A DNA stretch of 64,000 bases, from positions 1,364,001 through 1,428,000 of the forward strand of contig NZ_CP119988.1 in the NCBI RefSeq assembly GCF_029338515.1. Reading direction: 5' to 3'. The first letter of the stretch is position 1. Every line of letters starts with the position of its first letter. Both the position numbers and the translations under genes were made by a program. The stretch is from Haloglomus litoreum (GTDB lineage Archaea > Halobacteriota > Halobacteria > Halobacteriales > Haloarculaceae). Of the stretch, positions 54,130-58,204 are shown one piece after another. Under the pieces are notes generated by a model. That model was not told the origin of the DNA and searched no databases. It was given only the letters and a program-made list of their open reading frames with translations.

Positions 54130-55281
54130 ATGCCGCTTCGAACGCCGCCCCTCCGTGCGCTACACGCCGACCGGGGCGCGAAGTTCACCGAGTTCGGCGG
54201 GTGGGACATGCCCGTCGAGTTCGACTCCATCAGGACCGAACACGACGCCGTCCGCGAGTCGGCGGGACTGTTCGACGTCTCGCACATGGGCGAGATCGTC
54301 GTCAGCGGCCCCGACGCGACGGCGCTCACGGACCGCCTCGTCACCAACGACGTGGCCGCGTTGGACCCCGGCCAGGCCGTCTACGCCGCCATCACGGACG
54401 CGGACGGTGTCATGCACGACGACACCGTCGTCTATCGCCTCCCCAAGGACGAGACGCACCGTGCGGCGGATGAGGCGCCGGCGTACCTGTTCGTCCCGAA
54501 CGCCGGCCACGACGAGTGGGCCCACGGGCGCTGGTGCGACTACCGCGACGAGTGGGGGCTGGAGGCGACCGTCGAGAACGTCACCGACGACTGGGCCATG
54601 TTCGCCCTGCAGGGGCCCGACGCCGAGGCGCACCTGCGGGACGTGGCCGACGGCAGTTCGCCGGACCTCGGCCGGTTCGAGATGACCGGCGACGCCGTCG
54701 CCGGCGTCGACTGTCTCATCGCCCGCACCGGCTACACCGGCGAGGACGGCTTCGAACTGCTCGTCCCGTGGGGCAAGGCGGAGATCGTCTGGGCCGCGCT
54801 CACGGGAGTCGACGGCGACGACGGCGAGGATGAGGGCTCGGGTGCCCAGCCCTGCGGGCTCGGCGCGCGCGACACGCTCCGCATCGAGGCCGGCTTCCTC
54901 CTCGCGGGCCAGGACTTCCACCCCGAGGACGAGCCCCGGAACCCCTACGAGGCCGGCATCGGCTTCGTCGTCAAGCTGGACACCGAGTTCGTGGGTCGGG
55001 ACGCCCTCGAACGGGTCGACGCGGAGGGCGTGGACGAGCAGTTCGTCGGCTTCCGGCTGGTCGAGCGCGGCGTCCCCCGGAACGGCTACGACATCACCAA
55101 CACGGACGGGAAGGTCATCGGGACCGTCACCTCGGGCACGATGAGCCCGACGCTGGACGAACCCATCGGGATGGGCTACGTCCCGGTCGACTACGCCGAC
55201 CCCGGGACGACGATCCGGGTCGTGGTGCGCGGCCAGCAGAAGAAGGCTCGCGTGCAGACGCTACCCTTCCTGAACGGATAG
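54130..55281 (+). CDS. gcvT: glycine cleavage system T protein (aminomethyltransferase)
   Basis: 383 aa. GGWDMPVEFDSIRTEHDAVR, LFDVSHMGEI, ARTGYTGEDGFELLVP and the GLGARDTLRIEAG segments are GcvT hallmarks; a short acidic insert (DGDDGEDEGSG) lies at about 235-245. Releases ammonia and transfers the methylene group to the pterin cofactor. ATG 54130 follows a GATTTG box by about 28 nt. Normally first gene of a gcvT-H-PA-PB run, here separated from gcvH by 2.5 kb. Confidence 0.93.
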   Translation: MPLRTPPLRALHADRGAKFTEFGGWDMPVEFDSIRTEHDAVRESAGLFDVSHMGEIVVSGPDATALTDRLVTNDVAALDPGQAVYAAITDADGVMHDDTVVYRLPKDETHRAADEAPAYLFVPNAGHDEWAHGRWCDYRDEWGLEATVENVTDDWAMFALQGPDAEAHLRDVADGSSPDLGRFEMTGDAVAGVDCLIARTGYTGEDGFELLVPWGKAEIVWAALTGVDGDDGEDEGSGAQPCGLGARDTLRIEAGFLLAGQDFHPEDEPRNPYEAGIGFVVKLDTEFVGRDALERVDAEGVDEQFVGFRLVERGVPRNGYDITNTDGKVIGTVTSGTMSPTLDEPIGMGYVPVDYADPGTTIRVVVRGQQKKARVQTLPFLNG

Positions 55282-55909
55282 ATTTCTAGCAATTGGGGAT
55301 TTTGATTGTTAGGGCGCGCTTTAAGAATATTATCTCTATATTAATCGAAAATGTCTGTGTTAGATGGCTTATAATTACGAAACACAGAAACAGCTACGAA
55401 GCCCTCGCGCTCTCGACCACCCGCGGCTCGCTGCGCTCCTCGCTTCGGTCGCTTCGCTCCCTTCGCTGCGGTGCTTACCTCGCCGGGGGTGGGTCGAGAG
55501 CGCTCGCCCTTCGATTCCGCCAGGAGATTCCCGCCCCGGCCGAGCGTTCGCGCGTGGTGGTTCCAGCGGAGCACTAGCGTCCCCACACCTCCCCGCGCTC
55601 GCGCCGAAGTGTTCCGACCCCCTCGCTTCGCTCGGGGTCTCCACAGCGGGGGCGCGAGCGCGCTTCCTGGTCTCGGAACCAGCCGGGCGACGCAGCTGCT
55701 CGCCTGGTGTGTGCTCCCTCCGTCAGTCCAACTGGCGCGCGCTGGTGGTCGGCACCTGCCCCTCACGAGCGGCTTCATGCCGCGAGCACCACGGGCGGGT
55801 GCCGACCATCTCTAAGCGCGCGAGGGTCGAGAAGCGCAGCGCTAGCGAGCATCGGAGACGGCTGGGGAGGAACGAGGCCTACGGACCCGACTGACGAACC
55901 ATCCTGGCG

Positions 55910-55974
55910 GACTTCCGAAGGTGAGCCGAGCGCAGCGAGCGAGAAGCCGTCAGAGCTCGTCTCTGACGGAAGTC
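55910..55974. repeat. nested inverted repeats / hairpin
   Basis: CCGTCAGAG (55947-55955) and CTCTGACGG (55961-55969) form a perfect 9-bp stem with a 5-nt loop. An alternative outer pairing GACTTCCG (55910-55917)/CGGAAGTC (55967-55974) competes with it. Confidence 0.55.
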
Positions 55975-56110
55975 GAGCGGGTGAGGGCTTCGGGAGCAGT
56001 CTCGCTGTGGTCGCACGCGCCTGAACCAGAGGACGGGTGAGGGATTCGGTAGCGATTGCGTCGATTTCGGACACACGGAGCGCGACGCGCCCGCGGAGTT
56101 ATTTGCCGAC

Positions 56111-56117
56111 GATTTTA
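56111..56117 (+). promoter_or_regulatory. TATA box of small membrane gene
   Basis: The GATTTTATCC element centred near 56114 is about 29 nt before ATG 56144, leaderless spacing. It supports the reality of that gene. Confidence 0.55.
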
Positions 56118-56143
56118 TCCGACGAGAACGCTCGATATGCTGT

Positions 56144-56338
56144 ATGAACCGCCCCCATCGGCCGATGGAGCCCTCCAGCGGGTCCGCCTGGTTCCTCGGA
56201 TTCCTCGGGTTCCTCGTCCTCGGCGTCGCCGTGGCGGCCGTGATGGCGAGTACCGACTCGGCCGGCGCCGTCTTCGCGTTCGTCGTGGTGGTGGTCGCAG
56301 TCTCTGCGGGACTCCTCCACCGGTACGCCGGGTCCTGA
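56144..56338 (+). CDS. small two-helix membrane protein (64 aa)
   Basis: MNRPHRPMEPSSGSAWFLGF, then two hydrophobic helices (about 16-35 and 41-58). Good TATA spacing. Lies between gcvT and tnpB, in the opposite orientation to tnpB. Function unknown. Confidence 0.6.
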   Translation: MNRPHRPMEPSSGSAWFLGFLGFLVLGVAVAAVMASTDSAGAVFAFVVVVVAVSAGLLHRYAGS

Positions 56339-56369
56339 CCGGTGGCTGCCAGGCACCGTCCCCCGAACC

Positions 56370-56540
56370 ACAGCCTACGTCAGGTGTTACCCACGACTAC
56401 ACTCGTGGGCTTGTCAGTGGACTTCCGGTCTGTCCACTACTCGTGGTAGGCGAAAAGTCGCCGTTCCCGTTCAGCGTCCCTGACTTCAGGGCCACCTGAC
56501 AGTTGGCCCGTCCAGCGCCAGACTTGAGCCACCGCTGGAC
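56370..56540 (-). ncRNA. putative reRNA/omega-RNA (sotRNA) of tnpB
   Basis: In IS1341-type elements of Halobacterium salinarum, sense overlapping transcripts come from the 3' end of tnpB, and TnpB elsewhere uses such RNA as guide scaffold. The hairpin CCCACGA-loop-TCGTGGG (56390-56409) with the stop codon TAG in its loop is the only structure seen. Length and borders are guesses. Confidence 0.4.
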
Positions 56541-57780
56541 TAACTTCCACGCCACGTTCCGCGCCGCGTTGTAATCTGCGTGCAATTTCTTCCCACAGTT
56601 CATGCACTCGAACTCGTTCCCGTCACGATTGTCCTCGTGCGTGAACCCGCACTCCGAGTGACTGCACCGCTGGCTCGTGTACTGCGGTGTCACGTCATCT
56701 ACAAGCATACCGTACTCTTCGGCCTTGTACACGACGAATTCCTGAAGTTTGTTGAACGCCCACTGCTGGAACTTCTTCCCGTTCGAGATACGACTTCGAA
56801 TCTGCTTCAAGTTCTCGAACGCGAGAGCGTCACAGTCGAACCGACGAGCTTCCAGCACGATGGCGAGCGCGATTCGATGCAAGTAATCCTCGCTCCAGTT
56901 GGCGAACGAGCTGCCAATACGTTGAATCGTGAGATGCGCCGAGCGCGTCCCCGTTTCTTGCAGGCCACCGCGAACGCGCTCGTACTCGTCGCGCTTGTGG
57001 TTCAAGAAATCAGCGTTGCCGTAGAACGCGCCCGTACTCGTGACCGCCAAGTACCCGTTGACGTTCAGGTCGACGCCGAGAACCGTTCCGTTCTCGACTG
57101 CCGACGGATTCGTCTCCGGTTCCTTCTGGAAGTTCACGTGCAAGTAATACGTCCCGTCGCGCTCGTGGAGTGTCGCGCTCGATTTTTCCCACGCGTCGGC
57201 CTCCCAGTACGTCTCGAAGGGCGTTCCCTCCTGATCGTCGGGGAAGACGTACTCGGCGGTCACCCGGCCGTCCGTGGTGGACAGCGTGCAGTGGTCGTCG
57301 TTGAACGTGATGGTGCGCCGGTCGTAGACGACCACGCTCCCGCGGAACGTGGGTTTGCTGATGTCTTGGTCTTCCTCGAAGTAGAGCTCTTTGCACGAGG
57401 AGAGAGCTTCTGCCGCGAGCGACCGGGCGGCTTGGACGTGGTTAGCGGTGAGGTCGGTTGCCTCACGCACGTCGTGGTACGTGGCGTCGTTGAGCGTGGA
57501 TTTGCTCGTCTCGATGTTGGCTGGTGTGTCGCTCCACCCGTAGTCAGCGACATGTTGTGCTGCCTGTCGGAATTGGTCGAACGTCTCGCCGAGTCGGCTC
57601 TCGCCGTCTTCGTCGAGTACGTCGAGTTTGACCTGACAGTCCCGATTCAGTACCACGTCTCAAATCCTGGAAATCTGTTATTTATTTGTTTCGGGTCGGG
57701 TTGGAGAGTCGGACTGCTGTTGTTCGCGGGTAGCGTAAGTGGAGTGTTGACTTCCCCAGCAGCTGAAGCCGTGGGTTTCC
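56389..57780 (-). mobile_element. IS1341-type insertion element (tnpB only)
   Basis: One gene, tnpB, without tnpA. The right-end side has a 7-bp hairpin (56390-56409) overlapping the tnpB stop. The other end near 57740-57780 has the GCTGAAGCCGTGGGTTTCC block that resembles known haloarchaeal IS200/IS605-like ends. Exact borders are not proven. It lies between gcvT and gcvH. Confidence 0.6.
56397..57656 (-). CDS. tnpB: TnpB RNA-guided nuclease (IS1341/IS605 OrfB type)
   Basis: 419 aa, GTG start. All expected active-site parts are present: RuvC D196 (LGVDLNVNG), E281 (LAFENLKQIRS), D361 (ADYNAARNVAW), and the zinc ribbon C331, C336, C351, C354 (SHSECGF ... CMNCGKK). The N-terminus (QVKLDVLDEDGE) fits haloarchaeal TnpB. 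No frameshift, so it is probably active as an RNA-guided endonuclease that helps keep the element in place. Opposite strand to the gcv genes. Confidence 0.9.
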   Translation of the reverse strand: MVLNRDCQVKLDVLDEDGESRLGETFDQFRQAAQHVADYGWSDTPANIETSKSTLNDATYHDVREATDLTANHVQAARSLAAEALSSCKELYFEEDQDISKPTFRGSVVVYDRRTITFNDDHCTLSTTDGRVTAEYVFPDDQEGTPFETYWEADAWEKSSATLHERDGTYYLHVNFQKEPETNPSAVENGTVLGVDLNVNGYLAVTSTGAFYGNADFLNHKRDEYERVRGGLQETGTRSAHLTIQRIGSSFANWSEDYLHRIALAIVLEARRFDCDALAFENLKQIRSRISNGKKFQQWAFNKLQEFVVYKAEEYGMLVDDVTPQYTSQRCSHSECGFTHEDNRDGNEFECMNCGKKLHADYNAARNVAWKLVQRWLKSGAGRANCQVALKSGTLNGNGDFSPTTSSGQTGSPLTSPRV

Positions 57781-57786
57781 GTCTCG

Positions 57787-57794
57787 AAATATCT
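57787..57794 (+). promoter_or_regulatory. TATA box of gcvH
   Basis: AAATATCT about 28 nt before ATG 57821, directly after the element end block. It lets gcvH-gcvPA-gcvPB be transcribed although gcvT is 2.5 kb away. Confidence 0.55.
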
Positions 57795-57820
57795 ATCCCC
57801 TGCCCACACAACCCCCGCGT

Positions 57821-58204
57821 ATGAGCTTCGAGGTGCCCGAGGACTGCCGGTATCTGGAGACCCACGAGTGGGTCCGGCTGGAGGATGGAACTGCCCGCGT
57901 CGGCATCTCCGACTTCGCACAGGACGAACTCGGCGACGTCGTCTTCGTCGAACTCCCCGCCGAGGGCGACACTGTCACCCAGGAGGCCGACTTCGGCGTC
58001 ATCGAGTCCATCAAGGCGGTCTCGGACCTGTACGCGCCCGTCTCCGGGACCGTCGCGGCCGCCAACGAGCGGCTCGTCGACGAGCCGGAACTCGTCAACG
58101 AGGACCCGTTCGGTGACGGCTGGATGCTCGAACTGGAGGACGTCGACGAGGGCGAACTGGACGCGCTGCTGTCGCCAGACGAGTACCGCGACCAGATCGA
58201 GTAG
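57821..58204 (+). CDS. gcvH: glycine cleavage system H protein
   Basis: 127 aa. The lipoylation site K65 lies in [35 protein letters not shown] precedes it. Carries the aminomethyl group between the P and T proteins. Normal length. Confidence 0.95.

What the first reader, a model, noticed from the sequence alone, without database searches (positions are those of the whole stretch)
55282..57820. TnpB element and extra DNA split the glycine cleavage genes
gcvT is parted from gcvH-gcvPA-gcvPB by 2.5 kb holding a small membrane gene, palindrome-rich DNA and a full tnpB with all catalytic residues. The TAG stop of tnpB sits in the loop of the hairpin that probably belongs to its guide RNA. The element ends next to the gcvH TATA box, so it may alter gcvH expression. 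The neighbouring outside sequence left of about 56385 would act as guide.
Basis: partly seen in the sequence, partly recalled or inferred. Interest (0 to 1): 0.6.

Follow-up and report, generated by a model that had tools for sequence, protein, structure and literature searches.

The report
TnpB element splitting the gcvH promoter
A jumping-gene fragment encoding an RNA-guided DNA cutter of a well-known type has landed exactly inside the promoter of a glycine-breakdown gene in a salt-loving archaeon, and the gene now appears to be driven by a new promoter formed at the edge of the insert.

Summary
The window lies in a haloarchaeal genome of the genus Haloglomus. A 1,416-bp IS200/IS605-type (IS1341-like, tnpB-only) element occupies 56379-57794 on the minus strand. 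Its ends follow from recent twin copies elsewhere and from gap-free rejoining of the flanks against empty sites in three related genomes. It encodes a full-length TnpB with the D-E-D catalytic residues. Its omega-RNA has strong covariation support, including a pseudoknot with the right end. The TAG stop lies in the terminal hairpin loop, as in four intact close relatives. The guide is the 16-20 nt left of 56378.

The element did not part gcvT from gcvH: congeners already have them about 280-610 bp apart, one 12 kb. It split a conserved gcvH core-promoter box (CGAACCACAGCCTAC|ATG). A better-scoring promoter (TCTCGAAATATCTATC) now straddles the element's end at the leaderless position, so promoter replacement is likely but unmeasured. 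The TAM of the subfamily is TCAT (7 of 7 independent insertions); the window shows GGAT, so the site looks decayed. The 'palindrome-rich DNA' is a copy of a genus-wide dispersed repeat, unrelated to tnpB. New member of a known kind; the promoter split is the interesting part.

The parts
56379..57794 (-). tnpB-only IS200/IS605-type element (left end at 57794, right end at 56379)
   Evidence: Ends pinned by homology to twin copies L247/L248 and L004/L005; removing it rejoins the flanks without gap or duplication against congeners
56397..57656 (-). tnpB, 419 aa, GTG start, TAG stop
   Evidence: NF040570 guided_TnpB 155.6 bits over a cut-off of 100; PF07282; D196/E281/D361 invariant; Cas12f/TnpB fold
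56379..56541 (-). omega-RNA (reRNA) scaffold overlapping the 3' end of tnpB; 5' end approximate
   Evidence: Covariation in 20 relatives: 109 double-changed cells vs 37 in shuffles; window fold z = -3.6
56390..56409 (-). terminal hairpin of the omega-RNA; TAG stop of tnpB (56397-56399) in its loop
   Evidence: same arrangement in L042, L044, L045, L046
56379..56384 (-). right-end hexamer CCTGAC, pseudoknot partner of 56495-56500 (GTCAGG)
   Evidence: 99.2% of pseudoknot cells paired over 20 relatives
56495..56500 (-). hairpin-loop partner (GTCAGG) of the right-end hexamer
56363..56378 (-). DNA read as guide (GTAGGCTGTGGTTCGG) and at the same time the upstream part of the ancestral gcvH promoter box
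   Evidence: identical 16-mer in two congeners, one mismatch in a third
57795..57798 (-). TAM slot, GGAT here; TCAT in 7 independent insertions of the closest subfamily
57755..57775 (-). left-end hairpin, weakened by a bulge and a G-T pair
   Evidence: DNA fold -4.8 kcal/mol vs -8.3 to -16.4 in relatives
57782..57797 (+). present candidate gcvH promoter TCTCGAAATATCTATC straddling the element end, at -39 from the ATG
   Evidence: Promoter matrix score 7.26 vs 3.93 for the native box and -3.3 to 4.45 for 15 other left ends
57677..57692 (-). candidate tnpB promoter GAAACAAATAAATAAC
   Evidence: Score 9.47
57821..58204 (+). gcvH
   Evidence: PF01597
54130..55281 (+). gcvT
   Evidence: PF01571, PF08669
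55384..55991 (+). copy of a dispersed palindromic repeat, not part of the element
   Evidence: 72 matched pieces in the own genome, 90+ in two congeners
56144..56338 (+). small ORF, 64 aa, two predicted transmembrane stretches; not part of the element
   Evidence: no family match

Best explanation
This is a tnpB-only IS200/IS605-type element with an intact RNA-guided nuclease system. It was inserted, probably by a Y1 transposase acting in trans, 3' of a TCAT-like TAM lying inside the gcvH core promoter (the -41 to -24 box CGAACCACAGCCTACATG). The insertion left no duplication (shown). tnpB mRNA yields an omega-RNA whose scaffold overlaps the tnpB 3' end and whose guide is the neighbouring promoter sequence (structure shown, RNA inferred). 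The RNP should cut copies of the empty promoter that carry a TAM, such as a sister chromosome after excision or a congener's allele. Repair from the occupied copy then restores the element (inferred from the known TnpB model). gcvH transcription is now most likely driven by a new BRE/TATA-like promoter that arose where the element's left end meets the old TAM slot (inferred). With a changed TAM slot and a weakened left-end hairpin, the element itself is probably no longer mobile (inferred).
For: The ends agree from two directions: twin copies and empty sites in congeners. TAM is TCAT in 7 of 7 close insertions, and H. halophilum has TCAT plus 16 of 16 guide matches at its empty site. TnpB family, catalytic residues and fold. 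dN about 0.2 and dS about 1.0 against the nearest relatives, so the protein evolved under constraint. Omega-RNA covariation and pseudoknot. The only Y1 transposase found in the genome lies elsewhere. Promoter scores.
Against: No expression or cleavage data. The TAM slot is GGAT, not TCAT, so either it mutated after insertion or the original site differed. The promoter matrix comes from 527 unverified ORF starts, and the promoter-replacement argument is a single post-hoc case. No close second copy of this element was found in the genome, so recent mobility is not shown.
Confidence: 0.82

Rival explanations
1. The element is a dead relic: the protein and RNA look intact only because little time has passed, no guide RNA is made, and gcvH is transcribed from a fortuitous upstream signal or by read-through.
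For: Weakened left-end hairpin and altered TAM slot; a 3-nt insertion at the right end; no close second copy in the genome.
Against: Open frame with all catalytic residues, tnpB promoter score 9.47, pseudoknot and terminal hairpin kept despite 25% DNA divergence.
Confidence: 0.3
2. The element has been domesticated as a regulator: TnpB with its guide binds the promoter box in trans and represses or tunes genes that carry it, like TldR proteins.
For: The guide equals a conserved promoter box shared in three congeners with a thioesterase gene.
Against: TldR proteins have lost a working RuvC nuclease (PMC13418256); here the catalytic residues are intact. The own genome has no second intact box, so there is nothing left to regulate.
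Confidence: 0.05
3. The promoter-like sequence at the junction is coincidence, and the native box was never the gcvH promoter.
For: The native box scores only moderately (3.9; 6.5% of random sequences reach this).
Against: The box is conserved in 4 congeners while its surroundings differ, lies at exactly the modal distance, and recurs 43-44 bp before another gene in three congeners.
Confidence: 0.25

Closest known systems
ISDra2 TnpB and reRNA (IS200/IS605, Deinococcus; PMC8612924)
   Same: RuvC nuclease of about 400 aa, RNA from the tnpB 3' end and right end, guide from the flank, TAM at the left end
   Different: No tnpA in the element; TAM TCAT instead of TTGAT; protein only distantly similar (41.7 bits to 8bf8)
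Halobacterium salinarum sotRNA / omega-RNA of IS200/IS605 elements (PMC12558985)
   Same: Haloarchaeal RNA overlapping the tnpB 3' end, right-end hairpin, pseudoknot between a hairpin loop and the end motif
   Different: No match to any Rfam 15 family for the window (E up to 1); among 16 related loci the only match is a tRNA. The sotRNA families RF02656/RF02657 therefore do not cover this branch
TCAT-type tnpB elements of other haloarchaea (L042-L046, L247, L248)
   Same: 73% protein identity at best, same ends, same stop-in-loop, same pseudoknot hexamer
   Different: The window copy has a changed TAM slot, a weaker left-end hairpin and a promoter-like left end
TldR, nuclease-dead TnpB repressors (PMC13418256)
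   Same: Guide corresponds to a promoter
   Different: Catalytic residues intact here; the guide is simply the flank at the insertion point

Membership tests
TnpB RNA-guided endonuclease (NF040570) | Score over the family's curated cut-off | tested here: met
   155.6 bits vs 100
TnpB RNA-guided endonuclease (NF040570) | RuvC D-E-D and zinc-ribbon cysteines | tested here: met
   D196, E281, D361, C331, C336, C351, C354 invariant in 27 sequences
TnpB RNA-guided endonuclease (NF040570) | Cas12f/TnpB fold | tested here: met
   Foldseek E 2e-22 to AsCas12f; 8e-16 to ISFba1 TnpB; mean pLDDT 78
TnpB RNA-guided endonuclease (NF040570) | RNA-guided DNA cleavage next to a TAM | not testable with these tools
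   Needs a cleavage assay
IS200/IS605-type (IS1341-like) element | Defined ends, subterminal hairpins, insertion without target duplication 3' of a fixed motif | tested here: met
IS200/IS605-type (IS1341-like) element | Intact TAM (TCAT) at the left end of this copy (needed for mobility, not for descent) | tested here: not met
   GGAT at 57795-57798; taken as decay after insertion, since both ends otherwise fit
IS200/IS605-type (IS1341-like) element | Y1 transposase available | tested here: inconclusive
   None in the element; one elsewhere in the genome, beside another tnpB; action in trans not tested
omega-RNA / reRNA | Conserved structure with terminal hairpin and end-motif pseudoknot | tested here: met
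omega-RNA / reRNA | RNA is made and processed | not testable with these tools
   Needs RNA sequencing
Rfam sotRNA families (RF02656, RF02657) | Covariance-model match | tested here: not met
TldR repressor | Loss of RuvC catalytic residues | tested here: not met

The most novel reading that the evidence does not exclude
The guide is a conserved core-promoter box that in congeners also stands before a thioesterase gene. Gaining this element may therefore have exposed a second chromosomal site to cutting and driven its erosion: in this genome that second box is degenerate (five mismatches to the 16-nt guide). At the same time gcvH evolved a replacement promoter from the element's own end.
Probability: 0.08. 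Interest if true: 0.6.

Novelty: new member of a known kind. Interest (0 to 1): 0.36.

Why it matters
It gives an exactly mapped case in which an RNA-guided transposon landed inside a core promoter of a conserved metabolic gene, with empty sites in congeners. It makes two predictions that are easy to test: the guide should cut the empty H. halophilum site, and gcvH should start from a promoter built on the element's end. It also defines a TCAT-TAM haloarchaeal TnpB branch whose guide RNA is not in Rfam.

Tried and rejected
Rfam scan of the region and of 16 related loci: no omega-RNA family match. Virus contigs: no match for this TnpB. Closest plasmid copy by score (Halobacterium noricense, L267): no left or right end recognised by my end-motif search, adjacent ISH3 transposase gene, so useless for ends. 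Testing covariation with the window sequence included would have misaligned the right end because of its 3-nt insertion, so it was left out. The gcvT-gcvH gap of 2,414 bp in Halobaculum gomorrense is a glycoside hydrolase gene, not a tnpB. Considered and rejected: domesticated repressor (catalytic residues intact), operon splitting as the main event (separation older), and a link between the palindromic repeat and tnpB (repeat present at many sites without it).

Full report
Setting. The window is C1:1364001-1428000 of a 4.70-Mb single-contig genome. Relatives of its genus include Haloglomus halophilum ZY41, H. irregulare and MAG QS_4_70_19. The genome holds ten TnpB genes over the PF07282 cut-off and one Y1 transposase gene, located elsewhere beside another tnpB.

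What lies between gcvT and gcvH. gcvT ends at 55281 and gcvH starts at 57821. In 78 other haloarchaeal loci with both genes, 70 have them within 90 bp and most overlap or nearly touch. In Haloglomus they are apart: 279 bp in H. halophilum, 366 bp in H. irregulare, about 610 bp in G001, and about 12 kb and on opposite strands in the MAG. None of these has tnpB at this place. The gap is therefore older than the element, and gcvH has its own promoter in this genus (inference).

The element and its ends. In a genome of the same family, two 98.5%-identical copies of the closest tnpB type diverge exactly outside TCAT|ACAG...CCTGAC|. In the own genome two identical copies of a sister type diverge outside TCAC|AGAG...GATGAC|. 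By homology the window element is 56379-57794. Joining its two flanks gives a gap-free alignment with three congeners from the conserved box to the gcvH start, without duplication or loss. TAM is TCAT in seven of seven independent insertions of the closest type. The window has GGAT there, while the empty sites read TCAT (H. halophilum), GCAT (G001) and ACAT (MAG).

The nuclease. tnpB (56397-57656, 419 aa) matches NCBIfam guided_TnpB well over its cut-off. The residues D196, E281 and D361 and the zinc-ribbon cysteines are invariant in 27 relatives. The model resembles Cas12f and TnpB structures over its length, at moderate confidence. Divergence from the nearest relatives is about dN 0.21 and dS 1.0, so the protein was under constraint during most of that time.

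The guide RNA. In 20 related right ends, five hairpins and a pseudoknot between a hairpin loop and the terminal hexamer form 91% of possible pairs. There are 109 cells changed on both sides, against 37 in shuffles, and sliding the partners destroys the signal. Several different terminal hexamers each have their matching loop. The window was not used to build this alignment and fits it: terminal hairpin CCCACGA[GTGTAG]TCGTGGG, pseudoknot GTCAGG/CCTGAC, and folding z of -3.6. The TAG stop of tnpB sits in the hairpin loop, as in four intact close relatives, so it is a property of this branch and not a peculiarity of this copy. No Rfam family matches. A guide transcript is not shown. Published work shows such RNAs in Halobacterium (PMC12558985) and defines the roles of TAM and guide (PMC8612924).

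The insertion point. The 18 bases CGAACCACAGCCTACATG before gcvH are conserved in four congeners apart from one base in the MAG, while their surroundings differ. They start 41 bp before the ATG. The same box, with up to two or three changes, stands 43-44 bp before a hotdog-fold thioesterase gene in three congeners and hardly anywhere else. The element cut this box after CCTAC. In the own genome the thioesterase box is degenerate. A core-promoter matrix learned from 527 upstream regions of 80 haloarchaeal loci and the window gives the native box 3.9 bits at -40, the modal position. The present junction gives 7.26 bits at -39 (TCTCGAAATATCTATC), containing the haloarchaeal BRE consensus CGAAA (PMC4983044). 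Fifteen other left ends placed in the same position score -3.3 to 4.45, and the change of the TAM slot alone adds 2.3 bits. The simplest reading is that gcvH lost its promoter and regained one at the element's end. This is one case judged after the fact, and the start sites used are predicted.

Functional state. The left-end hairpin is weaker than in relatives (-4.8 against -8.3 to -16.4 kcal/mol) and the TAM slot is changed. Mobility has probably decayed, while the nuclease and RNA look intact. The guide matches H. halophilum's empty site over 16 of 16 bases next to TCAT, so that allele is a predicted target. In the own genome none of the near matches whose flank was read carries TCAT (one of the four was not read).

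The remaining extra DNA. 55384-55991 is one copy of a dispersed palindromic repeat (72 matched pieces in this genome, over 90 in two congeners; shorter arms in other genera). Its transcript would fold better than shuffles (z -5.9, 20 shuffles). Units of about 550-600 bp begin GAAGCCCTCGC and end GCGAGGGCTTC. It has no evident tie to tnpB. The 64-aa ORF at 56144-56338 has gene-like composition but no known relative.

Verdict. The object is a new member of a known kind, with an unusual and testable landing site.

Noticed in passing
window 55384-55991; e.g. L211, L217, L234, L245: Dispersed G+C-rich palindromic repeat, about 550-600 bp, ends GAAGCCCTCGC...GCGAGGGCTTC, at dozens of places per Haloglomus genome; some loci carry a tandem 56-bp piece of it (L209, L230). 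Shorter arms occur in several other haloarchaeal genera. No name found for it.
   Followed up: partly
L262, L263, L264 (upstream of a thioesterase gene); L265 for the own genome: The gcvH promoter box CGAACCACAGCCTACATG recurs 43-44 bp before a hotdog-fold thioesterase gene in three congeners and is degenerate in the window's genome, suggesting a small shared regulon or a shared unusual promoter.
   Followed up: partly
L009 (G000:C1:3022519-3025719): Another tnpB of this genome starts about 140 bp downstream of a tRNA gene.
   Followed up: no
L193, 7207-9504: In Halobaculum gomorrense a family 3 glycoside hydrolase gene sits between gcvT and gcvH.
   Followed up: partly
G003 contig C14 (L128, L091): In MAG QS_4_70_19 gcvT and gcvH lie about 12 kb apart on opposite strands, so the gcv operon is broken up further in this genus.
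   Followed up: no
window 56144-56338: Orphan 64-aa two-TM ORF; G001 has an unrelated 46-aa membrane-like ORF at the same place.
   Followed up: partly
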